From a virus, in the IMG/VR virus record IMGVR_UViG_3300030099_008323, positions 62,001 to 126,000 of that record: DNA of 64,000 nucleotides; one strand, written 5' to 3'. Below are positions 39,401-64,000 of the stretch, one piece after another. Within the stretch, counting starts at the first letter, position 1. Every line of letters starts with the position of its first letter. Below the pieces are notes generated by a model, which made no database searches, was not told the DNA's origin, and worked only from the letters and a program-made list of their open reading frames with translations. Position numbers and translations under genes: made by a program.

Positions 39401-42400
39401 GGTGCCAGACTATCATATCTGTTTTTATAAGTATTAAAAAATTCAATTGAATTTTCTGTTAGCACTCTGCTGTTTTCAAAAGGAAGATCGGAGTTGTCTA
39501 AAAGATCAGAAAGATCTATTGGTGATAACAACTCTCCAGCTAGAGGATTTGATGACTTACTAGACCAATATTTCGTACCCTCGGGAAGCTCATTAAAAAA
39601 CTCTGTCATAAGAACTGGCAACATCTGCTCTCTTCCAAATAAATTTTTTCCGCCATTTCTTATGAAATGGCCTATATTGCTATTGCCGACTTCATCTGGC
39701 CATGGAAGCTGCATATTTATTATTTTTCTGGCTAATGACACATAAGTCAAACTAGCTCCATAGCCAGCAAGCTCAGGGGCGTTAGAAATAGGATCGGCAA
39801 CTCCTAAAATAGGTACTCGCGGGGCAGATACATCATCCATTGAGTGGAAAATTAACTTTTGTACAGGGTTTTCCAATAACGCATTCTCTGGCGCTTTGAA
39901 TTGCGCTGAATTATAATGTATAAATTCATTGTAAGTCAAGCAATAGTTGGTATTTCTATATCTATTTTCTGTATCGGTTGAAGTATTTATAAAGTTAGGG
40001 CCAACAAAAGCGAAGCACTCAACTTTATAAGGATCTCTAGTAGCCTCTAAAAATTCTGTTTGCGCAAGCGCCATCTCATTTGGATCCGATATGGCCATTA
40101 AAGCTCTTGAGGGCAGGGAGAAGAATTTTAATGTCGACAAATCTCGAAGAAGAGTGCCTTCAACATTCATCAATATATTATCAGTAACCCTGTTCATTGT
40201 GTCTTTAATCCCCGCCGGCAAGGAAAAGGCGCCTTGAGGGCCACAAATTTCAGGTAACTTATTAGCAATTGGGTTACCTGTTGGGTATAAAAGATCTGCA
40301 ATGTCTTTTATTGTTCCACTTAAATCTTCTAACTCACGAGCAAATTGTCTCCTGGCTTGTTCATCAGACATTCCTGTATCCACAAGTTGTGTAATTCTAG
40401 CTGCGCTATTATAATCACTCTTTTGGCACAGTCCTTGTGAGGCTATTATGCGCGCGCCTTGAATAGTATCACATATGTCAATATCAATATCTTCTGATAT
40501 TCTTGTAAATATTGATTGGATAACTGCTCCGGAATCAATGCCGGCTCTATAAATACCATTGTGATTTGTAATTGTAAACTCAACACACTGGTTCAAAAGA
40601 TTAGTAGACGCCTGTGTTTTTAACAAAGCACATAGTTGATCTGTAGAGAGAGTCTCAACTATTTCAGTAAGCCACTTCAACAAATCGTTAGACCTGACTT
40701 CAGCGGGACCAACAGACTGACCTCCTCTAAAACCAGCTAGCTTACCAATGTCAGGTATCAATTGCGACGGATTGTTTCTTCCTAAAGATGAGCCTCTATC
40801 CTGTTCATCATCCTGCTCAAAGCATGTATTAAGATAGTGGGTAAGAACTGAATTTAAAATCTGACCAAGCATGGTGCCTACCGTACCCAAAAAAGTATCT
40901 AAAAGCATGTCTCCATAATCGCCCATAAAATTATTTGTGTTTAAATTATCTGAAAGATCAAGCTTTGGAGTGGGAAACCTAAACATTTTTTGTAAGTTCT
41001 CCCAATAATTTTCATAATATGAGGAATTAAACCCTTCGCCTCTTAGCAAATCTCTAGGCATATTCAATAGAGGACCTATGATAGCTTCACATATCTGCCC
41101 CAAATCTACAACTCTTTTTGCATAGGCAACCCACGCTTTAGCATCCTCAGCAAAAGCCTTAGTCGCATTAGACGTTTCAGCTGTAGCATAAACAGCTGCA
41201 TTGTTAGAATAATTAAAAGCGTCGCCTATGTCCCCTAAAGCATCAAAAGTACTGTTGATTAAAGAATCATACTGTTCTTTTTTAGGAACCAAAAAACCAT
41301 TTTGGACCATTATAGCATTTGCTTCAGCCACTGAATATCCTAATTCTTTTAGTCTCTGTCTCTCCTCTTGTATACTGCGTAAGTTATATCTTTCTAGATT
41401 TCCTTGTGCATCATATACCGGTGGCCTGATTACTCCAGGATTTAATTCAATCGCTACACCGCCTTTTTCTAAATTTTTAATGACATTAATTGCATAAGGG
41501 TCGACAACGCCAAATAATAAAGCTGCTGTCGCGAATGGTGCTCCGTCGTATGTCTCATCTAAATTTAATCCATCCTGTGAACTAAATTGAACTTCACCTG
41601 TGATAGGATCAGGTACGCCCTCAGAACGCTCTTCGCCTAAAATTTTGTCTAGATTATTGTCAATTCTATCTCTTAGACCATCTGCTGGATTAATTCCTAA
41701 AGCCATGGCTAGCGTTGGATTATAGTCGATCAATGCTTGTTTGAAGCCCATAGGATCGCTTTCAATAATTTTGACGATCACTGCCTCACATATTGCTTCA
41801 GCAGTTAGTGGCATACCAAACTTAGATTGCAAACAAGACATTAGAAGAGATAAAATACTTTGTGGATCTAAGTTGTTAAGAAACCCTCGATATAAAATCA
41901 TTAATTTTTCAAAAGCTACACTACTTGACTCCTCAAGTTCTTTTTGCCTCTCCTCAATGCTCTCTCTAGAGGACTGAGGACCAACTGCTGGAGTTGGCTT
42001 TTTAAATTGATCAAAGTAACTAGCTTGGCACTCTGGGCGACTATAAAACTGTTCTAAAATTTTTCGATCAGCTGTTGTAAGATCTGTCGACATTTCGTTA
42101 ATTTGCTTTAGTAACTCTTGACAGCTTATCATCTCTGGACTTGAGCTTTTTTTCTTAGATATATATACTCTCAATGGCGGAACAGAGTGTGTCATTAACA
42201 TCTCTATCCATGGGTCATTAATATCTTCAGTCATTGACGTCGGCGAGCTGGGGGTTTCCTCATATTTTACTAAGTGCCTAGCGTTCATTAAATAATGTAA
42301 AGTGCGTGTACCAATAACAGAAGATGTCTTAAGAATGCTTGGTGGCGAATCTCCAGATGATTCATCTGCTTCACTTTCTGATACAGCAATATCAGCTATC

Positions 42401-51739: not shown

Positions 51740-51951
51740 TATTCACTGCCATTGCTGTGAGGATATTCATCATGCTCCTCATATTCTTCTTTAAATTTAA
51801 CCAATGGTGGATTCATGACAAACAATTCTTTATTTTCGCTCACCTTAAAATTAAAATTTTTAAGAACTGGAACAATATCACTTTGTTCTAATAAAGATTT
51901 CTGCAGAGCCATCATAACAGCTCCTAGTGCCTCATCTGATAATTTATACAT
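51739..51951 (-). CDS. small conserved phage protein, unknown function
   Basis: A 70-residue protein (MYKLSDEALGAVMMALQKSL, then LEQSDIVPVL) with an N-terminal helix pair, a short beta-prone middle and an acidic end with two His. I recognise the opening from small proteins of marine T4-like phages; no function is known to me. Its ATG at 51951 has an excellent GGAGAAG within the end of the SDR gene, which it overlaps by eight bases. It marks the junction between the glycan island and the transcription/structural genes. Confidence 0.65.
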   Translation of the reverse strand: MYKLSDEALGAVMMALQKSLLEQSDIVPVLKNFNFKVSENKELFVMNPPLVKFKEEYEEHDEYPHSNGSE

Positions 51952-52810
51952 TACTTCTCCTTTTTATATTATTTATATAATCTTCTAAATTATGCTTTGT
52001 TTTCCATTTTAATTCTTCCTCACATCTTCTGAAAGGTATAACTGGATCTTTTCTATTACCTTTTTGTTGCTGTATATATTCAATATTATTAGAAAACATA
52101 CGAGCTACTTCTTCAATAGAATGTAAAGAATTACTATCACACAAGCAATATCCATCACCAGAACCATGAATACCTATTTTTTCCAAGCCGCTAACAACGT
52201 CTTGTATATGTGTAAAAAATCTTTTTTGTGTGCCAGGTCTAACAACTTTTAAAGCCTTGCCAGCTTTATATAATTCTTCGAATATACCAATTACAGTAGC
52301 ATACTTGCCATTTGATATTTGTCCGGGACCATATACATTAAAAAAGTATGCAATTGCATATTCTAGTCCAAACCACTCAGAATAGTTCTTAATTAACTCT
52401 ACGTTTTTTGCCTTAACCCAGGAGTACGGAGTTAAATTTTCATCCCTACCGGAATTTCCAAACTTGCTACTTGATCCGCCATATATTAATTTTGAATTGT
52501 TTTTCAAACAATATTTCAATACTTGATATGTCCCATCAACATTGTACTTCCATACTTTATCAATATCTTCAAAACTAGTTGATATTCTAGCATATTCACC
52601 AAGATGATATACAATATCTGCTTTTATACTAACTAAATCTAAAATATTGTTAGTGCTACCGGGAATATGGTTTACCCGTGTGTCAAAGAATAATTGACGT
52701 CCAGTAAAGTAATTATCCAGACAATATATATTATTAGATCTATCAAGTAGAAGTTTTTCAATTAAGGCTGATCCTATAAATCCGGCCCCACCTGTAACTA
52801 ATATATTCAT
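51944..52810 (-). CDS. extended SDR nucleotide-sugar epimerase/dehydratase
   Basis: A 288-residue extended short-chain dehydrogenase. NAD(P) site TGGAGFIG (6-13, G7-x2-G10-x2-G13), catalytic Y129-x3-K133 in TPYSWVKAK with the preceding Ser near 113-115, and the FFNVYGPGQ segment typical of UDP/GDP/ADP-sugar epimerases and dehydratases. Substrate cannot be read from the sequence. Its neighbours (kinase, nucleotidyltransferase, phosphatase) make an HldD-like 6-epimerase step one option, but UDP-sugar 4-epimerase or decarboxylase relatives fit equally. It is the last gene of the sugar island, with an AGGGAG before the ATG that overlaps the cupin stop. Confidence 0.8.
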   Translation of the reverse strand: MNILVTGGAGFIGSALIEKLLLDRSNNIYCLDNYFTGRQLFFDTRVNHIPGSTNNILDLVSIKADIVYHLGEYARISTSFEDIDKVWKYNVDGTYQVLKYCLKNNSKLIYGGSSSKFGNSGRDENLTPYSWVKAKNVELIKNYSEWFGLEYAIAYFFNVYGPGQISNGKYATVIGIFEELYKAGKALKVVRPGTQKRFFTHIQDVVSGLEKIGIHGSGDGYCLCDSNSLHSIEEVARMFSNNIEYIQQQKGNRKDPVIPFRRCEEELKWKTKHNLEDYINNIKRRSNV

Positions 52811-53169
52811 TAGTCTCCCTTAATTAGTCTATAACTGTCTTCATCGAAATGTTGAGTTGAAAATTCAAATAGCTCTGTATCCTCTAGCGCAATCATTTGA
52901 TGTCTTAGTCCAGTTGGGACGTGAAAATTATCTCCTGGAACTAATATTATTTCTTTAGCGCAATCCAAATCATCATATTTAGAATACTTTACTTTTATTT
53001 TACCAGACTGAACATAAAAAACCTCGTCTTTGATTTTATGATAGTGCCAAGAACATCTCCTATCTTTGACAAAATAAAGTAATTTTCCGCAATATTGTTC
53101 TTTGTTAACAATCCACTTTTCAAAACCCCAGCCTTTAGGCACAAAATGAATCGGTAAAAAACTTCTCAT
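52810..53169 (-). CDS. cupin, probable sugar or sugar-phosphate isomerase-like
   Basis: A 119-residue single cupin barrel. Metal-site motif WHYHKIKDEVFYV (two His plus Glu), PGDNFHVPTG with a further GLRHQM; it opens with VPKGWGFEKWI, typical of small cupins in surface-sugar clusters. It could act on a sugar phosphate or nucleotide sugar; the reaction is unknown. The ATG at 53169 is preferred because AAGGGGG lies six bases upstream; upstream ATGs at 53172, 53187 and 53193 are possible. It overlaps the HAD gene by 35 bases. Confidence 0.7.
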   Translation of the reverse strand: MRSFLPIHFVPKGWGFEKWIVNKEQYCGKLLYFVKDRRCSWHYHKIKDEVFYVQSGKIKVKYSKYDDLDCAKEIILVPGDNFHVPTGLRHQMIALEDTELFEFSTQHFDEDSYRLIKGD

Positions 53170-53479
53170 CATTAACCCCCTTATCATCAACATAATAATC
53201 TGCAGCTGGTTTTCCTAAAAACAACTGATGATATTTGCATCCCCACTCACCAAGCTGCTTTGCAGTTAAAACATAAAAATCTTGTATTGCTTTTTGAGCA
53301 TTGTTATCATGCCTGCCCATACCGCGAGCTGTCATATAGATAATTTTATGGCCATCATCATACAAAGAATTAATAAAACTAATTCTATCTCTCATAGGCT
53401 CCGACAATAAATAATTGCCACCACTCAGCTCACACTGTTTAGTACAAATAGTGCCATCAATATCAAATACATATGTCAT
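53135..53479 (-). CDS. HAD-superfamily phosphatase (capsule/LPS type)
   Basis: A 114-residue minimal HAD phosphatase. Motif I is VFDIDGTIC (D6 nucleophile, D8 acid/base), motif II is YMTARG near residue 52, and the C-terminal acidic motif is YYVDDKG near 95-101. The small size with no cap resembles phosphatases of capsule clusters. Encoded next to a heptose-type kinase and nucleotidyltransferase, it could supply the GmhB-like removal of one phosphate between those steps, although it is shorter than GmhB (about 190 residues). Overlaps the nucleotidyltransferase by four bases; GGAG precedes its ATG. Confidence 0.75.
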   Translation of the reverse strand: MTYVFDIDGTICTKQCELSGGNYLLSEPMRDRISFINSLYDDGHKIIYMTARGMGRHDNNAQKAIQDFYVLTAKQLGEWGCKYHQLFLGKPAADYYVDDKGVNDEKFFTDSFCA

Positions 53480-53856
53480 TTTTTCTCCAATGCCTTAGTT
53501 GTTGAATACCCATCAATATACCCAAAGATCTTAACCCTAGCAATATCTTTTCCAACAACTTCTTCTGGTTTGTAATCTCCACCTTTTACAATTATATCAG
53601 GCTTTAGCTTTTTAATTAAGTTATAAGGTGTATCTTCTTCAAAAATTACAACCCCATCAACATATTTACAAGACTCAAGCATAAATTTTCTATCCTCTGC
53701 AGAAAAAATTGGCCTTGAGGATCCTTTGAGATTTTTGACACTCTCATCGCTGTTGATACCAACTATTACGTCCCCCAAGCTTTTACAATATCTTAAAAGC
53801 TCAAAATGTCCTCTGTGTAACACGTCGAAACAACCATTAGTAAAAACAACACTCAT
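53476..53856 (-). CDS. HldC/RfaE2-type sugar-phosphate nucleotidyltransferase
   Basis: A 126-residue cytidylyltransferase-fold enzyme closely patterned on the C-terminal half of HldE (heptose-1-phosphate adenylyltransferase). NGCFDVLHRGH carries the HxGH nucleotide motif (H14, H17). Further family signals are VGINSDESVKNLKG, RPIFSAEDR, KPDIIVKGGDY, VVGKD, and the C-terminal GYSTTK. The expected reaction is ATP + D-glycero-beta-D-manno-heptose 1-phosphate to ADP-heptose; other sugar 1-phosphates are possible. Its ATG overlaps the kinase stop (ATGA), so the domain pair that bacteria often fuse is split here but translationally coupled. Confidence 0.85.
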   Translation of the reverse strand: MSVVFTNGCFDVLHRGHFELLRYCKSLGDVIVGINSDESVKNLKGSSRPIFSAEDRKFMLESCKYVDGVVIFEEDTPYNLIKKLKPDIIVKGGDYKPEEVVGKDIARVKIFGYIDGYSTTKALEKK

Positions 53857-54584
53857 ACCGTACTAACTCCTCTTTTCTGCACAACAGCTGTGGCGCATTG
53901 ATTAGCAAAGTTAATTGATTGCTCTATGTTCGATGTCTCTACAAATTTAACCACCAAGGCAGATATAAATGTATCGCCTGCTCCAGATGAATCTTTAATC
54001 TCAACCTCTGGCACTGGATATAAAACATTAAGATGCTTACATCCATCTCTACTCATTGTCACAATTAGTTTGTCTTTTATATCATTAGATATAGTGTGCT
54101 TTGTCTTTTCATATTCAGTGTTGTTAATTTTTATATATTTAACATGCTCACACCAATCACCTAATATTTTTTTTGTGTCCAGGAACACACAATCATGTTT
54201 TAAAGAGATGTTTTTTATATCGTCTTCAGATAAAAATCCTTTGTTATAATCAGAAATTATAACAGCATCATAGTTGTCAAAAGATATATTATTAATGTTA
54301 GATCTTCCATATTGTTTGTCATTTTCATCAACTCTCATAAACATATGGTTCATATTAAAATCTATATATCTAGTCTTTGTAATCCCCTTCCAATTTTCAT
54401 TGGTAAGCAAATTAGCTTTAGCTCCTAATGAAGAAACATTTCTGTATACATTTCTTGCCATACCACCATTATCAACTGATTTTACAGGATTAAAAACAGG
54501 CACTGGAGCTTCAGGGCATAATCGATTACATTCGCCATAAATAAAAACGTCCCTACAGCTCTCTCCGATAACTAATATCTTCAC
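53853..54584 (-). CDS. PfkB-family sugar kinase, HldE N-domain/RfaE1-like
   Basis: A 243-residue PfkB-type kinase. VKILVIGESCRDVFIYG opens the fold, CPEAPVPVF is the HldE-specific segment, GGMARNV the sugar-binding loop, and DSSGAGDTFISAL the anion hole with catalytic Asp. It is shorter than the HldE kinase domain (about 318 residues), mostly in the middle. The likely reaction is phosphorylation of heptose 7-phosphate at C1. I place the start at the GTG at 54584: TAGAGG lies six bases upstream and the DegT-fold stop ends two bases before; an ATG at 54602 would overlap that gene. Confidence 0.82.
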   Translation of the reverse strand: MKILVIGESCRDVFIYGECNRLCPEAPVPVFNPVKSVDNGGMARNVYRNVSSLGAKANLLTNENWKGITKTRYIDFNMNHMFMRVDENDKQYGRSNINNISFDNYDAVIISDYNKGFLSEDDIKNISLKHDCVFLDTKKILGDWCEHVKYIKINNTEYEKTKHTISNDIKDKLIVTMSRDGCKHLNVLYPVPEVEIKDSSGAGDTFISALVVKFVETSNIEQSINFANQCATAVVQKRGVSTV

Positions 54585-54585
54585 T

Positions 54586-55746
54586 CTAGCCTCTAACAAC
54601 ATCGCATATGTGTTTTATTTCTTCAAATGTCAACTCAGGATAATTTGGTAAGAAAAAACCGTTTGAGTGTATCTTATTACTCATTCGGTCATTAAACCTA
54701 CCGTACCTTTCATACCAAAAAGGATGCAAGCCTAGATTTCCTGCACTGAATATTCTAGTCTCTACACCATTTTCTACCAGTCTTTCTACTATCTGCTGCC
54801 TATGTTGATTACTCTCAGCCAAAGCACCAAAGGAGATTGACACAGGTTTGTTATTAAACCAATTTTGATACTGTACATATCCGTCCAAAAGGCGCGCATA
54901 TTCTAAATGATTCTCATATCTTCTTTGTGTTGCCCAGTCAGCTTTCTTAACTTGTCTAATTCCTAAAAATGCCTGTAAGTCAGTTGACCTTAAATTAAAA
55001 CCAGGCACAAAAAATGTAAAAGGCTTATGAAAATCATCAACCCTATATTTCTTAATTAAGCGACCATATTCTTTCTCATCTAGATCTTTTGCCCAACCAT
55101 GGCTGCGCAGCATAAGCAGCATATCGTATAGCTCTTTATCATCTGTATTCACCATACCGCCCTCAATAGTTGAAAGCTGGTGGCCAAAATAAAACGAAAA
55201 CGAAGACATATCGCCAATTGTACCAACCTTGCTGCCATCTTCATACTCTGCGCCTAAAGCAGCACATGCATCTTCCAATAAACAAAAGCCATATTTTTCT
55301 TTGAGTTGTAGCAATTTCTCCTTATAATGTGGCACTCCTAATACCTGCACATATATTACAGCGTCAGGCTTTTCAGTCTTGCAAATAAATTCTAACTGGT
55401 CTAGATCAATACCAAAGGTTTCTTCATCAGCACCAACCATAATTGGCTTAAGCCCAAGTTGAATCGCTGGTGATATTGTTGTGACCCAGCCAACCGAAGG
55501 CACAGCAATTTTTTTATTCTTTATTCTGCCAGACATTAAAGCGGCCGCAACCATCAAGAGATTTGCTGAAGATCCAGAATTATTAAAAACTGCATAATCA
55601 GTGCCAATAAATTCAGCCCAATCTTTTTCTACCTGCCAAGTCAGCTCACCCTTTGTAAGTCTAGGATAGCTTTTTAACCATGTACACAGTGCATCGATAT
55701 CTTCATCATTAATTGTTTCTTTAGCTAGGGGATATTTAATGTCCAT
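54586..55746 (-). CDS. PLP-dependent sugar 3-dehydratase (ColD/RfbH type, DegT fold)
   Basis: A 386-residue DegT/DnrJ/EryC1/StrS-fold protein, the length of ColD (388). It has the PLP-binding NNSGSSANLL and LLEDACAALGAEY segments. At the site of the internal aldimine the sequence reads SFYFGHQLSTIEGG: His189 replaces the Lys six residues before EGG. That replacement is the signature of the dehydratases ColD (His188) and E1/RfbH, which remove the 3-hydroxyl of a 4-keto-6-deoxysugar, instead of aminotransferases. A 3,6-dideoxysugar product is therefore expected; the nucleotide carrier (GDP or CDP) cannot be told. AAGGTG precedes the ATG. Confidence 0.88.
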   Translation of the reverse strand: MDIKYPLAKETINDEDIDALCTWLKSYPRLTKGELTWQVEKDWAEFIGTDYAVFNNSGSSANLLMVAAALMSGRIKNKKIAVPSVGWVTTISPAIQLGLKPIMVGADEETFGIDLDQLEFICKTEKPDAVIYVQVLGVPHYKEKLLQLKEKYGFCLLEDACAALGAEYEDGSKVGTIGDMSSFSFYFGHQLSTIEGGMVNTDDKELYDMLLMLRSHGWAKDLDEKEYGRLIKKYRVDDFHKPFTFFVPGFNLRSTDLQAFLGIRQVKKADWATQRRYENHLEYARLLDGYVQYQNWFNNKPVSISFGALAESNQHRQQIVERLVENGVETRIFSAGNLGLHPFWYERYGRFNDRMSNKIHSNGFFLPNYPELTFEEIKHICDVVRG

Positions 55747-55747
55747 A

Positions 55748-56425
55748 TTACACCTTTATATTATATTTTTTATGTTTTGCAAAGTTCTTGCAAAGATTTT
55801 CATAAACTATTTTATCATAAAAGTCATTTTTTTTAATACTTTCATGTGGTAAATTTGTAATTTTAAATTCTGTCTCTTCACAAACTTTTTTTCCTATTAA
55901 TGCACAGTATGTGCCAAGCCAATTATCACAATAATGGTGAATAAAAGATTCAGCGAAGATTACACCATCTAAATATTTATCTATTGTGTCTCTTAAAAAT
56001 AGAGGATATCTTATTATCTGTGGCGCATTTTTGCCTCTGCCACTAAGTCCAGCTGCGTATCGAGCCCAACGAGGTATAACAAAAGAGTGATTGTTTTCAT
56101 CACATGGAGATTTTATTATAAAATCAGTACCGTTATTATATTCTATTTCCATTTTCTTTATTAAATCATTAATATTGGCCGGCGGTAGTGTAACTCCTGT
56201 TAGACAAACAATAAATTTTCCTGTAGAGTTTTTATAAAGATTATTATAACAAGACACACTAGAGCCTGTGTCTTCAAATATTTTATATTCTATATTATTT
56301 TCACAAGAAATTTTTTTTGGACTGGCAATCAATATTTCATATGAGTAATCAATTTTTATTTTATTGAGAAAATTTATTTGCCTTAAGCAATCATCCAACG
56401 AGACAATTAGAAATGATATGTCCAT
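55748..56425 (-). CDS. putative glycosyltransferase (GT-A-like, divergent)
   Basis: A 225-residue protein. The start (MDISFLIVSLDDCLRQINFL, then YEILIASPK) resembles the first beta-alpha-beta of family 2 transferases, and TGKFIVCLTGV at about 70 corresponds to the strand before a DxD, although no DxD is seen. A later DGVIFAESFIHHYCDNWLG suggests an acceptor-side acidic motif. It is Lys/Asn-rich and more AT-rich than the structural genes. Context (between the dehydratase and the oxygenase) supports a sugar-transfer role, but the assignment is weak. GAAGG precedes the ATG. Confidence 0.5.
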   Translation of the reverse strand: MDISFLIVSLDDCLRQINFLNKIKIDYSYEILIASPKKISCENNIEYKIFEDTGSSVSCYNNLYKNSTGKFIVCLTGVTLPPANINDLIKKMEIEYNNGTDFIIKSPCDENNHSFVIPRWARYAAGLSGRGKNAPQIIRYPLFLRDTIDKYLDGVIFAESFIHHYCDNWLGTYCALIGKKVCEETEFKITNLPHESIKKNDFYDKIVYENLCKNFAKHKKYNIKV

Positions 56426-56440
56426 GATGCCTTCAAAAAT

Positions 56441-57400
56441 CTAATCCAAAAACTCTACTATTTTAATTGGTGCTCTTTCATAAAGCCTGGTATCTGCTAA
56501 TTTAGGATTTGCATACTTTATATTAGCTTGTTCTAGGGTCTCTTGTACAGAAATAAAAAGTGTATCTCCTAGTTTAGAGTATATCTCTTTATCTAAATAT
56601 TCATATCGATAATCTTCTAGATGAGCTTTCTTTCTAGTTTTTGCATCATAATACAGAGAATTAGGATTGTTAGTAATTACACCAAGGTCAAAAGATACCC
56701 TTATACCACCTTCGTTTAAACTTGTTCTGTGCAGACATGCATGGTCAAAAACGCTTATATAGCCCATTCTAGCATATCCTAGAAATTTTTTATCATTAAA
56801 TTTTTTTAATCCCTCATCATAATTTTCTAAGGGCAAAAAGAAATCTTTATTAACGTCACATGGTTCATAAAACTCTAGTTTTGTAGAAGGATCTCCTGTT
56901 AGAGACACGCCTAGTATTGCATCTCCAACATGAGATGCCCAAGAATCAGAATGTAGCTTTGTTGTAGCTAATGGCCTTGTGTGGTCTAAATCAGCTGTTT
57001 TGCCGGACATAACTCTTACAGTGCATGGCTGCACAGCCAAAAAATTATCTAATATATTAACTTCTCTAAGTGCGGTTACAATATGTTTTTGTAGATTGTT
57101 ATACTCTACAATATTTTCTTTTTTTGGATGAAACGCGCCATTGGGGGTTCGATTAGGTAATCTTAATATTTCTTTTTCATATTTTATTAAAAATTGTTCA
57201 TCAATAGCAATTTCTTTTTTTTGTACGACAGAAAGTGCTTTTGCAATGTATTTTAATACAAGATCTGTCAAAATACCATGTGTTTGTTCAGATAATTTAA
57301 TATCAAAATATATTCCGTGATCTCTATCCAAAATACAGTCAGGTCTTAAATAATCGTATAAACTGGATCTTTTTTCTAGTATCTCTTCTCTTTTTTTCAT
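56441..57400 (-). CDS. 2-oxoglutarate/Fe(II) dioxygenase, phytanoyl-CoA-hydroxylase-like
   Basis: A 319-residue protein with the facial triad of 2OG-Fe(II) oxygenases: H150-x-D152 in KLHSDSW, a distal His (H220 or H224 in FDHACLHRTS) and R234 in GGIRVSFD for 2-oxoglutarate. It would hydroxylate a small substrate, and within this island probably a sugar, a nucleotide sugar or a glycan substituent; the substrate is not visible. The ATG at 57400 overlaps the epimerase stop (ATGA). A GTG 18 codons upstream gives a longer frame, but it lies inside the neighbouring gene and lacks a reason. Confidence 0.75.
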   Translation of the reverse strand: MKKREEILEKRSSLYDYLRPDCILDRDHGIYFDIKLSEQTHGILTDLVLKYIAKALSVVQKKEIAIDEQFLIKYEKEILRLPNRTPNGAFHPKKENIVEYNNLQKHIVTALREVNILDNFLAVQPCTVRVMSGKTADLDHTRPLATTKLHSDSWASHVGDAILGVSLTGDPSTKLEFYEPCDVNKDFFLPLENYDEGLKKFNDKKFLGYARMGYISVFDHACLHRTSLNEGGIRVSFDLGVITNNPNSLYYDAKTRKKAHLEDYRYEYLDKEIYSKLGDTLFISVQETLEQANIKYANPKLADTRLYERAPIKIVEFLD

Positions 57401-57909
57401 ATGAATGAGGCCTCTTGATCTCTTATAGATAAAATAGGATTGTTTATTGGCCACTTTATATTAAGCGTGGGATCATTCCACTTAATAGATATTTGATTTT
57501 CTGGGCCATTATATCTCTCAGACCACTTATAAAAAAATAAACATTTTTTACTCACACATAAATGGCCATTCAAAAAACCTGCTGGTACATAAACCATTGT
57601 AGGTTTTTGATCAGACAGGTGAAAAGTCTTTGTCTTTAAGAAAGTATCTGAATCTTGCCTAAAATCAACAACGGCAAGAAATATCTCTCCATGTAAACAA
57701 CTTATTAATTTACCAGTAATATAGTCTCCATGTAAACCTCTTAAAACATTTTTGTAAGATATTGTAATCTTGTCTTCAATAAATTTAGGTAATATGTTGC
57801 AGTCCTCATATATCGACCAAATTTCACCACGGTTATCTACATGTTTATCTAATTTTATTTCTAACAAACCATCTAAATTATGATTAATTATTTCTCTTAC
57901 ATACTTCAT
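57397..57909 (-). CDS. RmlC-type nucleotide-sugar 3,5- or 5-epimerase
   Basis: A 170-residue cupin of the dTDP-4-dehydrorhamnose 3,5-epimerase family (RmlC is about 183). The active-site NVLRGLHGD (R57, H60) and DFRQDSDTFLK, then VPAGFLNGH, FFYKWSERYNGPENQISIKW and NDPTLNIKWP follow the RmlC pattern. The GD following RGLH differs from the usual HYQ. It acts on a 4-keto-6-deoxysugar at C5 (and C3), consistent with its place beside the ColD-type dehydratase. Overlaps both neighbours by four bases. Confidence 0.82.
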   Translation of the reverse strand: MKYVREIINHNLDGLLEIKLDKHVDNRGEIWSIYEDCNILPKFIEDKITISYKNVLRGLHGDYITGKLISCLHGEIFLAVVDFRQDSDTFLKTKTFHLSDQKPTMVYVPAGFLNGHLCVSKKCLFFYKWSERYNGPENQISIKWNDPTLNIKWPINNPILSIRDQEASFI

Positions 57910-58856
57910 GGAATGAATTTACACTTAATTTTATCATAACACAACTCGTCCTCATTTAAGAAAAAATACTCGTTTACCTTTTCTAGTAGACGAGATGAAT
58001 TTTTTGCAAATCCATTTTCATCATAGGCATCTGGATTGTGTGGCATAATTTTATTGCACTCTTCGTATCCAACACCGCATTCATACGCCTCTTTATCATT
58101 TATAAATGCTAGAGCATCACGGCCATAAAGTAAATTATTCCATGTATTTGAATGCTTATGTGAGTGATGAGAAAAACCTGCAGAAGCGCCGTCGATGCTA
58201 GTATGATGTCTTATTTGACGATCTGCCATTATCACCCATCTTTGAGATGATGCCGCGGCAATATAATTAAATACAGATTCTGAACAATGCGCTGCAAATA
58301 CGTCAGGCTCAATTTTATTATTACAATTTTTAAATATTTCCTTGCTAAACAAGTGAGTATGTTGATTAATAGATTTACCTATGGGGATTATATAATCATC
58401 TCCTGTAATCTGCATTTTATCAGTTGTATGTTTAAATTTAGGATCTAAAATGTCTAAAGCCTCATCAGTGTCCACTTGCAGCGCAACAATTCCATTTGGG
58501 CCAGATTTTAGACACTCATAGGATTTTGCTAGTATATCATCATCTTCAAACCAACACCCAGAATCAACATACATATAAGACTCAAACTCTCCTAGATGTC
58601 TTACAGATTCTTGACATGCCTTATTAAAAGTTATATTTACAGTATGAAGCTCTGGAGTTAGACAGTAGGATATCTGATTGCCAAATGTTTCTAATATTTT
58701 TTTAATACATTCAGGGCTATTTTTGCAAGACGACAAAACAACCCTAAAGCCATCAAAATTTTGATTTAAGAATGTTCTAATGCATTTTATATAATGCTCA
58801 GTGTTGTCTCTTCTGATGCCACATGTGTTATAAACCAATAATACTTTGTTTTGCAT
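57906..58856 (-). CDS. glycosyltransferase-like protein, tandem copy A
   Basis: A 316-residue GT-A-like protein: VLLVYNTCGI, DNTEHYIKCI, RVVLSSCKNS, then YMYVDSGCWFEDD, where a DxD-type site may be D-S-G. The paralogous neighbour (copy B) matches over the whole length, and the two share a 48-base identical block near their 3' ends (see repeats). The conserved HTVNITFNKA and the EECNKIMPHNPDAYD segment are likely substrate or acceptor determinants. No TM segment. TAGGA precedes the ATG, overlapping the stop of copy B. Donor and acceptor are unknown. Confidence 0.65.
   Translation of the reverse strand: MQNKVLLVYNTCGIRRDNTEHYIKCIRTFLNQNFDGFRVVLSSCKNSPECIKKILETFGNQISYCLTPELHTVNITFNKACQESVRHLGEFESYMYVDSGCWFEDDDILAKSYECLKSGPNGIVALQVDTDEALDILDPKFKHTTDKMQITGDDYIIPIGKSINQHTHLFSKEIFKNCNNKIEPDVFAAHCSESVFNYIAAASSQRWVIMADRQIRHHTSIDGASAGFSHHSHKHSNTWNNLLYGRDALAFINDKEAYECGVGYEECNKIMPHNPDAYDENGFAKNSSRLLEKVNEYFFLNEDELCYDKIKCKFIP
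58017..58064. repeat. 48-base identical block, copy in gene A
   Basis: This is identical base for base to 58974-59021. It encodes the C-terminal EECNKIMPHNPDAYDE segment in both paralogous glycosyltransferases, while the flanking codons differ, including at synonymous positions. Confidence 0.9.
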
Positions 58857-58862
58857 ATTTTC

Positions 58863-59840
58863 CTAAGGGATAAACTTACACTTTATTGTATCATAATTTA
58901 ATTCTTTATTTGACAAAAATAAATATTTTTTTATTACACTTTGTAAATTATCTATGTTCTTGCATAGGCCCTCTTCATCATAGGCATCTGGATTGTGTGG
59001 CATAATTTTATTGCACTCTTCATACCCTAAACCTGCATCTGCAGCTAATTTATTATTAACAAAATCTACCGCGTCTCTTCCATATAGTAAATTATTCCAA
59101 GAGTTATTTTTAACTAATTCACCACTCTTATTTTTAGATTCTACTCTATGCGTAAATCCTGACGAGGGGCCATCAACAGCTTTCAAATGCCTAACCTGAT
59201 AGTCGGCCATTATAGCCCATCTTTTGCCAACTGATGCTGCAATGTAATTCAGCACAGACTCTGAACAAAAGGCAGCAAAAACATCAGGATAAAGCTTCTT
59301 ATATTTTTTAAATATTTGATTACTAAAAACAGCAGTGTGCTGATTAACAGATGTTCCAATTGGCACTACTAGATGCTCGCCAGTAACTTGGATATGCTTT
59401 GATTCGTATAAATATGGATAGCCTAAATTTTCTAAGCATTCATCTGTATCGGTCTGTACCACAACAATACCATAATTATTTTCAACTAAAGTTTTATGAG
59501 ATAGACTGAAAATATCATTTTGGTCATCGAAAGTACATCCAGAATCAACGTACATATACCCATCAAATTCACCAAACTTCTTTACAGATTCTTGAACTGC
59601 CTTGTTGAAAGTTATATTAACGGTATGTAATTCTGGTGTCAAAGAATAAGATATCTTATTACCAAATTCTTGATAAATTTTCTTAATGCAATCAGTACTA
59701 TTTTTACAAGAAGATAATACTACTCTACAGTTATCTAAATTTTGAGCTAGCATACTTTTTAGTGAGGATATATACCAATCCGTGTTATCGCCATTTATTC
59801 CACATGTGTTATACACTGCTAATATTTTATTATTATTCAT
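58863..59840 (-). CDS. glycosyltransferase-like protein, tandem copy B
   Basis: A 325-residue paralogue of the next gene downstream: the same NTCGI, RVVLSSCKNS, ELHTVNITFNKA, YMYVDSG and NSWNNLLYGRDA segments. Differences cluster in the middle (residues about 105-190), where substrate choice would be set. It overlaps the radical SAM gene by four bases (ATGA). The pair arose by tandem duplication followed by divergence, except for the 48-base block. The function is probably transfer of two related sugars, or successive residues, to one glycan. Confidence 0.65.
   Translation of the reverse strand: MNNNKILAVYNTCGINGDNTDWYISSLKSMLAQNLDNCRVVLSSCKNSTDCIKKIYQEFGNKISYSLTPELHTVNITFNKAVQESVKKFGEFDGYMYVDSGCTFDDQNDIFSLSHKTLVENNYGIVVVQTDTDECLENLGYPYLYESKHIQVTGEHLVVPIGTSVNQHTAVFSNQIFKKYKKLYPDVFAAFCSESVLNYIAASVGKRWAIMADYQVRHLKAVDGPSSGFTHRVESKNKSGELVKNNSWNNLLYGRDAVDFVNNKLAADAGLGYEECNKIMPHNPDAYDEEGLCKNIDNLQSVIKKYLFLSNKELNYDTIKCKFIP
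58974..59021. repeat. 48-base identical block, copy in gene B
   Basis: This is the second copy of the 58017-58064 sequence, in the same orientation, 957 bases apart. Confidence 0.9.
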
Positions 59841-61033
59841 ATAAATTCTGGATGTTTAATTTTTGAAACAATTTGTTTTTGCGCATCTAAAAGCTTTTGC
59901 TTATCTAAATTATCAATATCTTTATACAATGTCCACATCATTTTATTGCTCTCATGTGGCTTACAAAGCTGTGTACATTTAGAGAAACACTCAACATTAT
60001 CGATTAAATGCATAACTTTTTGTCTTTTATTAACATTTTGCCAAATATCTTTAAAACTACTGTCGTACAATCTACCATAGCTATATTGCTTATACCCTCG
60101 ATGATTTGTACAAACATAAACATGGCCGTCTGCGCCAACGCAGGGTTGGATTTGCGATCCTAAACATTTTTTATAGTTTCTTCCATATAGAGATGGATCA
60201 TTTTCTAAATCTTGCAGCTTGTACCCATTAATTTGATATTTATCCCCTAATATTTCTTTAGCCTGCTTGAGCAAGGGCTCTACCTCTGTATTCCAAAAAT
60301 CAATCTCTCTTTGTACACCCTCTTCTCTTTCACGATTCACAACCTCGGGTTTAAACTGGCAGTAGTCAACATCAAATTTACTAAAGTATTTAGCAAAATC
60401 TACAATCTCACTATAGGTGTCAGGAGTTATAACAAAACCAACACCTATAGTTATTTTTTTACCTTTATTATTATTAATTTGTACTAGTTTAGCTAAGTTA
60501 TCAGACATCTTTTGCCAGCCTTGATTTTTTCTAGCTCTTCTAACTGAATTATATGTTTCTGGGGTTCCAGCATCAATCGAAAAGCGCACCCAAGTCATAT
60601 TTTCAACAAATGTATCAAATAGATCCCACCTGTCAAGTAAAACACCGTTAGTGAAAATACCCATTTTAACAGAATTAGCTCCTAAAAATTGAATAGCCTC
60701 TTTCAAATGTCTATTAAGTGTTGGTTCTCCGCCGCCGGTCCAATTTACTGCCCTAACTTTCATGTCAACAAAGTCTCTGCAAAGATCCATTAGGACCTTG
60801 CGGGGCATAATTGATCGATCAAAAGTTTCTAAATTTTTTGATTCTGGAAGGTGTATATACGAGGATATACAAAAATAGCATCCGTGATTGCATGCATTGC
60901 TAGGATCAACCTCCACTAAAACAGGATTTGAATAGCCTGTTTCTAAATGTTCTAAAGCTCTGTCGACATTAGCGATTATCTTTGCTTGGGGGTTGAAAAT
61001 AAGAGAATCATTTAATAAATCTTCAATTTTCAT
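59837..61033 (-). CDS. radical SAM protein with SPASM-like C-terminus
   Basis: A 398-residue radical SAM enzyme. The [4Fe-4S] motif is C48-x3-C52-x2-C55 (NACNHGCYFC), followed by VNWTGGGEPTLNRH (the GGEP motif). The C-terminal third carries several Cys (KKCLGSQIQPCVGADG, VYVCTNHRGYKQY, CFSKC, QLCK), consistent with a SPASM/twitch auxiliary-cluster domain. Such proteins modify peptides, sugars or alcohols. In a glycan island a sugar dehydrogenation, epimerisation or deoxygenation is plausible, but peptide modification cannot be excluded. It overlaps the exostosin-like gene by 11 bases and is coupled to copy B. Confidence 0.85.
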   Translation of the reverse strand: MKIEDLLNDSLIFNPQAKIIANVDRALEHLETGYSNPVLVEVDPSNACNHGCYFCISSYIHLPESKNLETFDRSIMPRKVLMDLCRDFVDMKVRAVNWTGGGEPTLNRHLKEAIQFLGANSVKMGIFTNGVLLDRWDLFDTFVENMTWVRFSIDAGTPETYNSVRRARKNQGWQKMSDNLAKLVQINNNKGKKITIGVGFVITPDTYSEIVDFAKYFSKFDVDYCQFKPEVVNREREEGVQREIDFWNTEVEPLLKQAKEILGDKYQINGYKLQDLENDPSLYGRNYKKCLGSQIQPCVGADGHVYVCTNHRGYKQYSYGRLYDSSFKDIWQNVNKRQKVMHLIDNVECFSKCTQLCKPHESNKMMWTLYKDIDNLDKQKLLDAQKQIVSKIKHPEFI

Positions 61034-61937
61034 TTTTATTTTTTAGCCACTTTAAAAAATATTCGGTAGGATCTTTAAAATATTCACGTATCACGTCGTC
61101 AAAATATCTTTTAGCTTTTTCAGCTCTTTGTTCCAACAATTTGTGGGGTATATTATTTATCTCCTGAAGACATTCTTTAATATATTCTGGGCTATTATCC
61201 TCCTTACATATTCTATAAACAAAACTAGTATCGTAAGTATCTTCACCAACTAAAAAATAATCATAATCTGATATTAATATTGGTACCCTATTATAATAGC
61301 AGCTCTCTAGCAACCTTACACTATCAATTCCAGATCCCCTAGGACACAAAGATATGCTACTTTGCAACATAGTATCGATGTAATCTTTTTGTACCTTTGA
61401 TCCAATTTCAGATGGACCAGACCAAGTCCTATTGATATGAAGATTCTTATCTAAATCTGAATGATGAAGTGCATGGACCATCATTGCTCTAACAATATGA
61501 TTTAAATATCCACGAAAACCAAAACTTTTTTTCCTGGGAAACTCATACTGTTCATTTTGATTATCAATAATATCCAATAAAAGATGAGAAAAAGTTGGTC
61601 TGGCAAAAAGATATTTAATATCTGAGTAAATCTTAAGTGGACCCATAGTTGTGATGATACAATTGTGAAGCCAATTAGGTATTTGCATTCCACCTTCACC
61701 TTCTATATCACATATATGCTTATCTTCATTTCCGTCAAAATATTCAAAATCAGATTTTTTAAAATTTTGATATTGATCATTGGGGATCTGTCCCATATAA
61801 AAATAATCAGCTTCTTCCGGGCTGACTATTGTACAATGATCTCTAATTCCTTGCTCACTTAATGGCACCGTATTATAATAGATTTTAGTATCATCATGCA
61901 CATGTTTTTTTGCATTAGGATATACGTATAATTTCAT
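61023..61937 (-). CDS. exostosin-like glycosyltransferase (GT47)
   Basis: A 304-residue GT-B-type protein. The C-terminal nucleotide-sugar site is SISLCPRGSGIDSVRLLESC, then NRVPILISDY, the exostosin pattern (CPRG, R-L-x-E, P-x-I-I). The N-terminus (MKLYVYPN and EEADYFYMGQ) is like exostosin families that begin K-V-Y-V-Y. It should transfer a sugar from a nucleotide donor to a growing glycan. It starts two bases after the ThDP enzyme stops. No Shine-Dalgarno beyond ATGGAA. Confidence 0.75.
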   Translation of the reverse strand: MKLYVYPNAKKHVHDDTKIYYNTVPLSEQGIRDHCTIVSPEEADYFYMGQIPNDQYQNFKKSDFEYFDGNEDKHICDIEGEGGMQIPNWLHNCIITTMGPLKIYSDIKYLFARPTFSHLLLDIIDNQNEQYEFPRKKSFGFRGYLNHIVRAMMVHALHHSDLDKNLHINRTWSGPSEIGSKVQKDYIDTMLQSSISLCPRGSGIDSVRLLESCYYNRVPILISDYDYFLVGEDTYDTSFVYRICKEDNSPEYIKECLQEINNIPHKLLEQRAEKAKRYFDDVIREYFKDPTEYFLKWLKNKNEN

Positions 61938-61939
61938 AT

Positions 61940-63808
61940 TTATTCCATCGATTCGCTAACATTAAAAATACTAGGCATTGGTGGATCCTCAGAAATAGGC
62001 AGAGGCTCTACAATCATATTTTCATAAAATTCTTCTCTAGGAAGATAAGGGTACATATCCTCTACTGGAGTACTCCAGCCAACTATTTTTGGCTCATATG
62101 TATGGTATTCATGGCAATTAACGTCACAAACCATTGGGCCATCAAACTCTAGAAATTGTCTTATCTTGTCTCTAACTTGTTCATATGTATCCTCTCCAGT
62201 TATAGTCATTGTAGGTACTCCATATGCGTCTGCAATTGCAATGAAGTTTGGCGGCGCATATCCTTTTGGGCCACATGCTTCACTTCTTCCTTCAAAGTTG
62301 ACTTCTTGAAATGCTTTCGTAATTCCGTATATATGATTATTTAAAATAACTGTTTTAAGCTTAATATTGTAATTTAAAAGAGTCTGAAGCTCTTGAATAT
62401 TCATATTAAACCCACCGTCTCCAATAACACAAACAACATTTTGATCTTCGCTAGCAGCGAATACGCCTCCCATTGCTCCAGCAAAAGAAAAGCCCATAGG
62501 TGAATTTCCGTTATTTGTATAATATCTTTGACCGGTCTTTGTTTTAAAAGCGTGGTTCAACACAACAATATTACCGCCACAGTCTCCTACCAACACATCA
62601 TTGGATTTCATTTCCTCTGACAATATTCTTGCAAAAGCATATGGATGAACAGAGTCACCCTCCTTAAACATATCTTCCGTGACAGGATCATACTTCTCCT
62701 TCCAATCTTTTACTTTAGTCATCCACTTAGAGAAGTCTGGCAAATAAGAGCCGGCAGTAGAGTTATTGCAATATGCTAGCCTTTCTCTTAAGAGCTTTAT
62801 AAAAAGCTTAGCATCTGAATGAATACACTCATCGAATGGAAGCTGCTGCCATTTTTTAACTAAATTAGCTTTGTCAATGTCAACCATATATTTTTTTGCT
62901 TCTCTAGCAAAAGTACTAGGCTCACCGCCAGTTATCCTACCAGATATTCTACTTCCAATAGCTAATATTAAATCAGAATTCTGTATACCAAAATTTCTTC
63001 CAGCGCCGCCGTATGTGCCGATTCTACCACCATAATATTCAAAATCAGAACAAACTATGTCAAGAGCGTTCCAAGTTGGAAAACAGGGTATCTGTAGTTC
63101 TCTAGCTAACTCCATAAAATCTTCATTTGCATCAGCAAGGCCCACGCCTGCTCCAATCATCAAGCAAGGCCTTTCAGAGTTTTTTAAATCTTCTATAAAC
63201 TTATCAATCTGAAAATTAATCTTGTCGACATTAAAAACTGGCTGGTTAATCTCTTTGTTGTAAGACCTAAGAGAATCAACCTCAACTTCCATTTTTGCCA
63301 CATCAATTGGTAAATCAATTAGTACAGGGCCCGGTCGTCCAGTAGTTGCAATGTGAATTGCCTTTTCCAGCTCATACCTGATGTCCTCTGGGTTTTCTAC
63401 TAGTTTAGCATATTTTGTAATTGGTTCTACAATACTGACTATATCAGTCTCTTGAAATCCTATTTGCCTAATTGACTCATCAGGTCGCATGTATTGCGTC
63501 TTGATTTGACCAGTGATAAATACACATGGAACTGTATCATAAAAACAATTGCCAATTGGTGTTACAAAGTTCATACCACCAGGACCACTGGTTGCAATAG
63601 ACACGCCATATTTTCCAGAAACCTTTGCATAGCCCTCTGCGGCAAAGCCACCAGCTTGCTCATGCATAACAGCAATATATCTGGTTTTATCATTTCTGGT
63701 GAACGCATCAATCAAATGACCATTAGCTGCTCCATAAACTACAAAAACTTCTTTTATACCATCTTCTGCTAAGTGATCAATAACATAATCAGCAACTTTT
63801 TTTTTCAT
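61940..63808 (-). CDS. ThDP-dependent acetolactate-synthase-like enzyme (possible YerE-type sugar carboligase)
   Basis: A 622-residue protein of the acetohydroxyacid synthase/pyruvate oxidase family with all three domains. The PYR domain has the catalytic Glu in AVMHEQAGGFAAEGYAK (E50). The middle domain has ALDIVCSD and GTYGGAGRN. The PP domain has the ThDP motif VIGDGGFNMNIQEL (GDG ... N). It has no regulatory partner nearby, so branched-chain amino acid synthesis is unlikely. In O-antigen clusters, relatives such as YerE add a two-carbon unit from pyruvate to a 4-keto-3,6-dideoxysugar, which fits the ColD-type dehydratase here. The start has AGAGGA six bases upstream; the first codons hold a nine-A run. 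Confidence 0.82.
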   Translation of the reverse strand: MKKKVADYVIDHLAEDGIKEVFVVYGAANGHLIDAFTRNDKTRYIAVMHEQAGGFAAEGYAKVSGKYGVSIATSGPGGMNFVTPIGNCFYDTVPCVFITGQIKTQYMRPDESIRQIGFQETDIVSIVEPITKYAKLVENPEDIRYELEKAIHIATTGRPGPVLIDLPIDVAKMEVEVDSLRSYNKEINQPVFNVDKINFQIDKFIEDLKNSERPCLMIGAGVGLADANEDFMELARELQIPCFPTWNALDIVCSDFEYYGGRIGTYGGAGRNFGIQNSDLILAIGSRISGRITGGEPSTFAREAKKYMVDIDKANLVKKWQQLPFDECIHSDAKLFIKLLRERLAYCNNSTAGSYLPDFSKWMTKVKDWKEKYDPVTEDMFKEGDSVHPYAFARILSEEMKSNDVLVGDCGGNIVVLNHAFKTKTGQRYYTNNGNSPMGFSFAGAMGGVFAASEDQNVVCVIGDGGFNMNIQELQTLLNYNIKLKTVILNNHIYGITKAFQEVNFEGRSEACGPKGYAPPNFIAIADAYGVPTMTITGEDTYEQVRDKIRQFLEFDGPMVCDVNCHEYHTYEPKIVGWSTPVEDMYPYLPREEFYENMIVEPLPISEDPPMPSIFNVSESME

Positions 63809-63887
63809 TTATTCCTCTATTGTATACCATGCATCATTATAAGCTCTTTTTTAAAATGCTTAAATTCTTCCGCGTCAAATTTTTTAT

Positions 63888-64000
63888 CTACTTTTTTTTT
63901 ACTGTAGTTGTTTCAGGGGTGGCGCTATGATTCGTTGGAAAGCCCTGATCAGTCTCATAAACAACCTCATCGTGCTTCCAATTACCACCACCTAAGAGCT
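63888..64000 (-). CDS. 3' end of an unidentified gene, possible -1 frameshift (partial)
   Basis: The last 36 codons (LLGGGNWKHDEVVYETDQGF, ending in PETTTVKKK) end at TAG 63890-63888; the gene runs off the right edge, and I do not recognise the family. The stop lies directly after A_AAA_AAG. Reading on in the -1 frame adds 24 residues (VDKKFDAEEFKHF, then KKELIMMHGIQ) and ends at 63817, eight bases before the next ATG. Both stop and spacing then look normal for this genome. So the true end may be 63817, by programmed frameshift or because one A is missing from the A9 run. Confidence 0.6.
   Translation of the reverse strand, partial: LLGGGNWKHDEVVYETDQGFPTNHSATPETTTVKKK
63891..63897 (-). other. 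A_AAA_AAG slippery heptamer before an in-frame stop
   Basis: The coding strand reads GTA AAA AAA AAG TAG. The zero-frame codons AAA-AAG before TAG form the classic bacterial -1 slippery heptamer, the type used in E. coli dnaX. No downstream stimulatory hairpin is obvious in the next 70 AT-rich bases. Confidence 0.5.

What the first reader, a model, noticed from the sequence alone, without database searches (positions are those of the whole stretch)
51944..64000. A contiguous phage-borne glycan synthesis island of at least 13 genes
Seen: ThDP carboligase, GT47, radical SAM, two GT-A-like, RmlC-type, 2OG oxygenase, GT, ColD-type dehydratase, kinase, nucleotidyltransferase, HAD, cupin and SDR follow each other on one strand, with mostly overlaps or gaps under 20 bases. 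Inference: it builds an unusual sugar and attaches it, either to virion proteins, to the host LPS (blocking superinfection) or, less likely, to DNA. The combination of activated heptose-type enzymes and dideoxysugar-type enzymes in one phage operon is what I would look at first as a possible new system.
Basis: partly seen in the sequence, partly recalled or inferred. Interest (0 to 1): 0.6.

Follow-up and report, generated by a model that had tools for sequence, protein, structure and literature searches.

The report
Phage branched-sugar island with PanB partner
A T4-like marine phage carries a sugar-building gene island whose core pairs an enzyme that adds carbon branches to deoxy sugars with PanB, a supposed vitamin B5 enzyme, which suggests that viral PanB, until now read as a vitamin gene, makes a building block for an unusual sugar coat.

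Summary
Fourteen tightly packed minus-strand genes lie at 51944-63808, and the island runs on past the window end, about 21.4 kb and 24 genes in all, inside a 186-kb T4-like myovirus record. It is not a chimera: at least six independent contigs keep it between the same phage genes.

The first gene past the window edge is panB. In 57 of 58 distinct viral PanB loci the neighbour is an AHAS-like ThDP gene; the 58th is interrupted only by a 66-aa opposite-strand ORF. Every DegT motif scored nearby carries the ColD/RfbH-type histidine. The ThDP enzymes group with JanthE (YerE-like carboligase), not AHAS, and none of 64 scorable ones has the AHAS tryptophan. PanC, IlvC and IlvD are absent. Viral PanB has changed ThDP subtype and gene order repeatedly without losing the pairing, and one virus recruited an unrelated bacterial PanB into the same slot.

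Best explanation: PanB makes a 4-hydroxy-2-oxo acid, which the ThDP enzyme couples to a 4-keto-3-deoxy sugar made by the ColD-type dehydratase, giving a branched sugar. Glycosyltransferases then attach it, most likely to virion protein. The chemistry is inferred, not shown. The heptose-type half is already known from cyanophages.

The parts
51944..52810 (-). SDR1, epimerase-type nucleotide-sugar enzyme (HldD/GalE-like; SSSKFG, no dehydratase Asp-Glu)
   Evidence: PF01370 115 bits; TIGR02197 76.7 bits, below cut-off; motif
52810..53193 (-). small cupin of the heptose-type cassette (true start probably internal)
   Evidence: PF07883; conserved next to HAD in relatives
53135..53479 (-). HAD phosphatase, capsule type (EcbF-BcbF-like)
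   Evidence: TIGR01689 28 bits, weak; order conserved
53476..53856 (-). HldE-C-like sugar-1-phosphate nucleotidyltransferase
   Evidence: TIGR02199 152 bits, cut-off 181.5
53853..54602 (-). HldE-N-like PfkB sugar kinase
   Evidence: TIGR02198 120 bits, cut-off 345; 51-55% identical to kinases of cyanophages S-SM2 and P-TIM68
54586..55746 (-). ColD-type PMP-dependent 3-dehydratase (SFYFGHQLSTIEGG, His in place of PLP Lys)
   Evidence: PF01041; ColD 2gms 188 bits; motif
55748..56425 (-). unassigned protein, possible glycosyltransferase
   Evidence: no Pfam match; 27-29% hits in L008/L009
56441..57454 (-). probable Fe(II)/2OG oxygenase; start more likely near 57400
   Evidence: HxD...H and Arg conserved in three homologues; no Pfam; fold failed
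57397..57909 (-). RmlC-type 3,5-epimerase
   Evidence: PF00908 133.5 bits
57906..58856 (-). GT-A-fold glycosyltransferase 1
   Evidence: AlphaFold pLDDT 90.5; Foldseek SpsA/TarP
58863..59840 (-). GT-A-fold glycosyltransferase 2, paralogue of the former
   Evidence: 59% identical to GTA1
59837..61033 (-). radical SAM/SPASM enzyme
   Evidence: PF04055, PF13186
61023..61937 (-). GT47 / RXYLT1-like glycosyltransferase
   Evidence: PF24785 35 bits over cut-off, PF03016 below cut-off
61940..63808 (-). YerE-like ThDP-dependent carboligase (Phe in place of AHAS Trp)
   Evidence: PF02775/02776/00205; best PDB hit JanthE 8rph 303.7 bits; tree; residue
63888..64000 (-). 3' end of panB (full gene 63888-64826 in extended window coordinates = L002:889-1827); nine further island genes run to extended coordinate 73295 (B12-radical SAM, SDR2, methyltransferase, LicD-like, Mpo1-like, p133, GT2-type, two GT4)

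Best explanation
The island is a phage-encoded glycan factory whose core makes a carbon-branched deoxy sugar. Inferred steps: (1) the ColD-type enzyme removes the 3-OH of a nucleotide-bound 4-keto-6-deoxy sugar, probably GDP-linked and supplied by the host in this phage; (2) PanB hydroxymethylates a 2-oxo acid (pyruvate or 2-oxoisovalerate) with methylene-THF to give a 4-hydroxy-2-oxo acid; (3) the YerE/ErwE-like ThDP enzyme decarboxylates that acid and adds its acyl unit to the C4 ketone of the sugar, leaving a tertiary alcohol with a hydroxylated branch; (4) SDR, RmlC, radical-SAM and oxygenase genes tailor it; (5) a separate heptose-type cassette makes a second activated sugar; (6) six or seven soluble glycosyltransferases assemble the glycan on a cytoplasmic acceptor, most likely a virion protein. 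Shown: gene content, conservation, pairing, residues and phylogeny. Inferred: substrates, reactions and acceptor.
For: PanB-ThDP adjacency in 57 of 58 distinct viral PanBs, the 58th separated only by a 66-aa opposite-strand ORF. Reverse search from two other ThDP subtypes: every locus not cut off by a contig end has PanB next door. Viral PanB is one clade, yet the ThDP subtype has changed at least 4-5 times on starred branches, and gene order changes with the subtype. L182 carries a bacterial-lineage PanB (67% identical to a spirochaete protein) in the same slot. Every DegT motif scored nearby has His for Lys. In the two ThDP-first subtypes a His-type dehydratase lies near in 33 of 34 loci and a 4,6-dehydratase motif in 29 of 34. 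ThDP: closest solved structure is JanthE, above AHAS; JanthE falls inside the viral radiation and AHAS outside; AHAS Trp is absent in all 64 scorable viral proteins. PanB catalytic motifs are kept. ErwE uses 4-hydroxy-2-oxobutanoate-type donors on CDP-4-keto-3,6-dideoxyglucose (PMC12247030), the class of compound PanB chemistry makes. No PanC, IlvC or IlvD in 26-28 viral records, controls positive. No initiating transferase or polytopic membrane protein.
Against: No enzyme activity is known for any viral member. This record encodes no recognisable 4,6-dehydratase, and most loci with this ThDP subtype lack one within the DNA held, so the acceptor sugar must come from the host or be something else. 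The ThDP enzyme also occurs without PanB in some viruses (L018-L021, L023), so PanB is not essential to the ThDP step. PanB pocket residues look canonical, so ketopantoate remains a possible product. The virion target rests only on the absence of membrane export genes; Wzx/Wzy and ABC families were not searched by HMM.
Confidence: 0.6

Rival explanations
1. PanB and the ThDP enzyme are auxiliary metabolic genes that boost pantothenate/CoA or branched-chain amino acids, and sit in the glycan island by chance.
For: PanB passes the curated TIGR00222 cut-off. Two papers read viral PanB this way (PMC8940887; PMC6851583), and a prasinovirus review reads viral acetolactate synthase as amino-acid synthesis (PMC5371798). 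Microcystis phage MaAM05 does have panB close to panC.
Against: PanC, IlvD and KARI are absent from all 26-28 viral records tested. The ThDP proteins lack the AHAS Trp and fall outside AHAS. The constant partners are ThDP and His-type DegT, not pan or ilv genes. MaAM05 PanB belongs to bacterial PanB, not the viral clade. In a virome study the only pantothenate-pathway gene listed as viral-enriched is K00606, which is panB to my knowledge (PMC4022391).
Confidence: 0.13
2. PanB and the ThDP enzyme make a branched acyl group (pantoyl-like or acyloin-derived) that decorates an amino sugar, rather than a C-branch on the sugar ring.
For: PanB retains canonical catalytic residues. Acylated amino sugars are common in polysaccharides (established knowledge).
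Against: The associated DegT enzymes are all His-type dehydratases, which remove OH instead of adding NH2. The ThDP relative of known function, JanthE, performs ketone carboligation. No dedicated acyl-transfer gene was recognised in the island.
Confidence: 0.13
3. The glycan is built on host LPS or capsule during infection, blocking superinfection, rather than on the virion (a rival for the target only, compatible with the sugar chemistry proposed).
For: Heptose-type enzymes are typical of LPS core; comparable cyanophage cassettes carry heptose-synthesis annotations.
Against: No initiating sugar-phosphate transferase and no polytopic membrane protein in the island. Host flippases or direct addition to LPS core inside the cell could still serve.
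Confidence: 0.3
4. The sugars are attached to phage DNA.
For: Glycosyltransferases and nucleotide-sugar enzymes are present; T4 glucosylates its DNA (established knowledge).
Against: No thymidylate synthase/dCMP hydroxymethylase family protein in the record.
Confidence: 0.04
5. Assembly chimera with a host O-antigen contig.
For: Sugar-enzyme content resembles O-antigen loci.
Against: Same flanks (Cas4-like/GT4 side and Zn-ribbon/late sigma side) in several independent metagenome contigs; T4-like core genes in the record.
Confidence: 0.01

Closest known systems
YerE / ErwE / JanthE branched-sugar pathways of bacterial LPS (yersiniose, erwiniose)
   Same: AHAS-fold ThDP carboligase closest to JanthE, near a His-type 3-dehydratase and SDR genes; ErwE uses 4-hydroxy-2-oxo acid donors (PMC12247030)
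   Different: Phage-encoded, fixed pairing with PanB as presumed donor source, ColD-type instead of RfbH-type dehydratase in this phage, no encoded 4,6-dehydratase here, no LPS export genes
ColD of the GDP-colitose pathway
   Same: His at the PLP-lysine position; highest PDB score (188 bits)
   Different: No GDP-mannose 4,6-dehydratase recognised in the record; shares an island with a ThDP carboligase
Heptose-type sugar cassettes of Kyanoviridae cyanophages (S-SM2, P-TIM68)
   Same: Split HldE-like kinase and adenylyltransferase with HAD, cupin and SDR genes; T4-like myovirus
   Different: Those islands have a transketolase-type ThDP gene and no PanB or YerE-like gene
Viral pantoate transferase reported as a vitamin B5 auxiliary gene (PMC8940887, PMC6851583)
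   Same: Probably the same gene family
   Different: Context here is sugar branching, without PanC
Acetolactate synthase plus 4,6-dehydratases and glycosyltransferases of prasinovirus OtV5 (PMC2386258)
   Same: Acetolactate-synthase-like gene among sugar genes in a marine virus
   Different: Eukaryotic virus; adjacency to PanB not examined here

Membership tests
YerE-like ThDP carboligase | AHAS-type N, middle and C domains, GDG motif and catalytic Glu (HEQ) | tested here: met
YerE-like ThDP carboligase | Groups with a characterised YerE-like enzyme and apart from AHAS | tested here: met
   JanthE inside the viral radiation (99*), five AHAS outside (100*), root placed on AHAS
YerE-like ThDP carboligase | Gene cluster makes a 4-keto-3,6-dideoxy sugar acceptor | tested here: inconclusive
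   His-type 3-dehydratase present; 4,6-dehydratase in 29/34 loci of the other two subtypes but not in this record
YerE-like ThDP carboligase | Couples 2-oxo acid to a ketone giving a tertiary alcohol | not testable with these tools
   needs enzyme assay
Acetohydroxyacid synthase (BCAA synthesis) | Acceptor-specificity Trp (Arabidopsis W574) | tested here: not met
   Phe in window; no Trp in 64 scorable viral proteins; Trp in 4 of 5 AHAS controls
Acetohydroxyacid synthase (BCAA synthesis) | Accompanied by IlvC and IlvD | tested here: not met
   0 of 26 records
Vitamin B5 auxiliary pathway | PanB family match and catalytic residues | tested here: met
Vitamin B5 auxiliary pathway | Accompanied by PanC | tested here: not met
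   0 of 28 records, controls positive
ColD / RfbH 3-dehydratase | His replacing the PLP lysine | tested here: met
   SFYFGHQLSTIEGG
ColD / RfbH 3-dehydratase | Closest to ColD among solved relatives | tested here: met
   188 vs 130 bits for the CDP-type
Lipid-linked O-antigen/capsule locus | Initiating transferase and flippase/polymerase | tested here: not met
   PF02397 absent; no polytopic protein in the island by hydropathy; Wzx/Wzy HMMs not run
DNA glucosylation (T4-type) | Hydroxymethyl nucleotide synthase of the thymidylate synthase family | tested here: not met
   PF00303 absent, controls positive
Heptose-type cassette of cyanophages | HldE-N-like kinase, HldE-C-like adenylyltransferase, HAD, cupin, SDR together | tested here: met

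The most novel reading that the evidence does not exclude
Viral PanB is not a vitamin B5 gene at all but the donor-making enzyme of a virus-specific branched-sugar pathway. It would turn one-carbon units (methylene-THF) into 4-hydroxy-2-oxo acids that YerE-like carboligases graft onto deoxy sugars, and the pairing has been assembled repeatedly in marine phages with different ThDP partners and, once, with a different PanB lineage. No characterised branched-sugar pathway that I know of uses a ketopantoate-hydroxymethyltransferase homologue.
Probability: 0.5. Interest if true: 0.76.

Novelty: new variant of a known kind. Interest (0 to 1): 0.62.

Why it matters
PanB was the most abundant vitamin-related viral gene in an oxygen-minimum-zone study and was read there as boosting host coenzyme A (PMC8940887). 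If the pairing found here reflects function, that reading is wrong for this viral clade, and a whole class of 'metabolic reprogramming' genes becomes a glycan-coating pathway. It would also give biocatalysis a naturally paired donor-maker and carboligase for tertiary alcohols from viruses, which the field's own review names as unexplored (PMC12247030). The claim is directly testable with two purified enzymes.

Tried and rejected
The 2OG oxygenase fold had only three sequences and failed (pLDDT 42); not used. T4-type late promoter TATAAATA: 12 sites, 10.4 expected, 39 of 100 shuffles as many: no signal.

ThDP and PanB tblastn in the phage collection found mainly host housekeeping genes in contaminated or unverified records, apart from MaAM05 panB. 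Searches for papers joining viral acetolactate synthase, PanB and glycans found none.

Chimera, DNA modification and BCAA pathway were considered and rejected for the reasons given under rivals. The 5ahk structure, deposited as acetolactate synthase II, may be PpYerE (recollection, unverified); it falls between AHAS and the other rows. A paper on PanB side activity and one on formaldehyde ligases were read for evidence that PanB accepts pyruvate; neither gave it, so the donor substrate stays open.
Full report
WHAT IS THERE. The window is bases 62001-126000 of a 186,103-base virus record. Fourteen minus-strand ORFs at 51944-63808 are packed with gaps of -59 to +15 bases. The island does not stop at the window edge: panB, a B12-dependent radical SAM enzyme, a second SDR, a methyltransferase, a LicD-like protein, an Mpo1-like protein, a 133-aa protein and three glycosyltransferases follow at once, so it covers about 21.4 kb and 24 genes. 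The record is a T4-like myovirus: terminase, portal, major head protein, maturation protease, baseplate wedge, UvsX and PhoH all match PHROG families. Its terminase is 44% identical to that of Flavobacterium phage immuto. The island is not a chimera: contigs from several metagenomes (L008, L009, L010, L034, L042, L045) keep it between the same flanking genes.

CHECK OF EACH GENE. The two GT-A-like proteins have no Pfam match, but a confident model of the first (pLDDT 90.5) matches SpsA and TarP. The oxygenase is supported only by its conserved HxD...H and Arg. The 225-aa 'GT' remains unassigned. The DegT protein is ColD-type: histidine replaces the PLP lysine (SFYFGHQLSTIEGG) and ColD is its best solved relative (188 bits vs 130 for the CDP-type dehydrase).

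THE CENTRAL OBSERVATION. Scanning viral contigs with PanB gave 68 loci. Pooled with the ThDP scan, 57 of 58 distinct viral PanB genes lie directly beside an AHAS-like ThDP gene; in the 58th only a 66-aa opposite-strand ORF intervenes. Searches started from two other ThDP subtypes gave the same result from the other side: every locus not cut by a contig end has PanB next door. Every DegT motif scored nearby is the His type, either ColD-like or RfbH-like. ThDP genes without PanB do exist (L018-L021, L023), so the dependence is one-sided: PanB goes with ThDP, not always the reverse.

THE PAIRING SURVIVES PARTNER CHANGES. Viral PanB forms one clade (99*), but its ThDP partner falls into at least three subtypes, with at least 4-5 switches forced by starred branches. 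Gene order follows the subtype: PanB first with subtype T1, ThDP first with T2a and T2b. L010 and L029 are sister PanBs with different ThDP subtypes in opposite order. In L182 the slot is held by a PanB from another lineage, 67% identical to a spirochaete protein. Chance neighbourhood does not explain this.

WHAT THE ThDP ENZYME IS. Its best solved relative is JanthE (8rph, 303.7 bits), ahead of plant AHAS (240 bits). JanthE is a characterised YerE-like enzyme coupling 2-oxo acids to ketones (PMC12188165). On a tree rooted with AHAS, JanthE lies inside the viral radiation. The AHAS acceptor-specificity tryptophan is absent from all 64 scorable viral proteins and present in 4 of 5 AHAS controls.

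WHY NOT VITAMIN OR AMINO-ACID METABOLISM. PanC is absent from 28 records, IlvD and KARI from 26, with positive controls; these records may be fragments. One cultured phage, MaAM05, does carry panB close to panC, but its PanB belongs to the bacterial group. Published readings of viral PanB as a vitamin B5 gene (PMC8940887, PMC6851583) discuss the pantothenate role and, in the passages read, not the neighbouring genes. In a virome study the only pantothenate-pathway gene listed as viral-enriched is K00606 (PMC4022391), which is panB to my knowledge.

PROPOSED MECHANISM (inferred). PanB transfers hydroxymethyl from methylene-THF to a 2-oxo acid, giving a 4-hydroxy-2-oxo acid. That is the donor class preferred by ErwE, which couples it to CDP-4-keto-3,6-dideoxyglucose to make erwiniose (PMC12247030). 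In the T2a and T2b loci the acceptor side is visible: 33 of 34 have a His-type dehydratase and 29 of 34 a 4,6-dehydratase motif. In this phage the 4,6-dehydratase is missing, so a host GDP-4-keto-6-deoxymannose is the likeliest source. That is the main gap.

WHERE THE SUGAR GOES. No initiating sugar transferase, no polytopic membrane protein in the island and no thymidylate-synthase-type base modifier. This favours a cytoplasmic protein acceptor, probably the virion, over lipid-linked O-antigen or DNA, but does not prove it.

COMPARISON WITH WHAT IS KNOWN. The heptose-type half is known from cyanophages S-SM2 and P-TIM68, whose islands also carry a transketolase-type ThDP gene. YerE-like chemistry is known from bacterial LPS. 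New here are the viral YerE-like enzymes and their fixed pairing with PanB. I file the island as a new variant of a known kind.

LIMITS. No activity was measured. Adjacency counts include related contigs, though identical PanBs were counted once. PanB specificity cannot be read from sequence.

Noticed in passing
L002:17560-19782 and L004:3530-4042 (same record): A run of small genes whose products share the N-terminus MKITKSQLKQIIKEELE.VLNE with unrelated C-terminal parts; possibly a leader or capsid-targeting sequence cut by the head maturation protease.
   Followed up: no
L208:6978-8186 (S-SM2) and L209:6847-7992 (P-TIM68): Cyanophage sugar islands carry a transketolase-type ThDP gene beside a zinc alcohol dehydrogenase and the heptose-type kinase; possibly a non-homologous counterpart of the YerE-like branching enzyme.
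   Followed up: no
L182 (ThDP-PanB region): PanB from a separate lineage with motif GDMPQGSYEIS, shared with spirochaete and Cloacimonadota loci L102 and L147 that lack panC next door; these bacterial proteins may not be true PanB.
   Followed up: partly
L002:1829-3382; L019-L021: The B12-dependent radical SAM gene sits beside PanB here but directly beside ThDP in viruses without PanB, so it may act on the same branch.
   Followed up: no
L002:4826-5464 and window 61023-61937: A LicD-like gene and an RXYLT1-like GT in one island: relatives of the eukaryotic fukutin and RXYLT1 families that act on alpha-dystroglycan glycans.
   Followed up: no
L026 and L027: Two adjacent ORFs both hit the ThDP query (60/51% and 58/49%); either a split gene or a tandem pair.
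   Followed up: no
L043:15974-17537: Sialic-acid-synthase-like (NeuB) and CMP-sugar synthetase-like genes next to the ThDP-PanB core of this contig, read by eye.
   Followed up: no
window 33427-44685: A single 3752-codon ORF with no PHROG match in the structural region.
   Followed up: no
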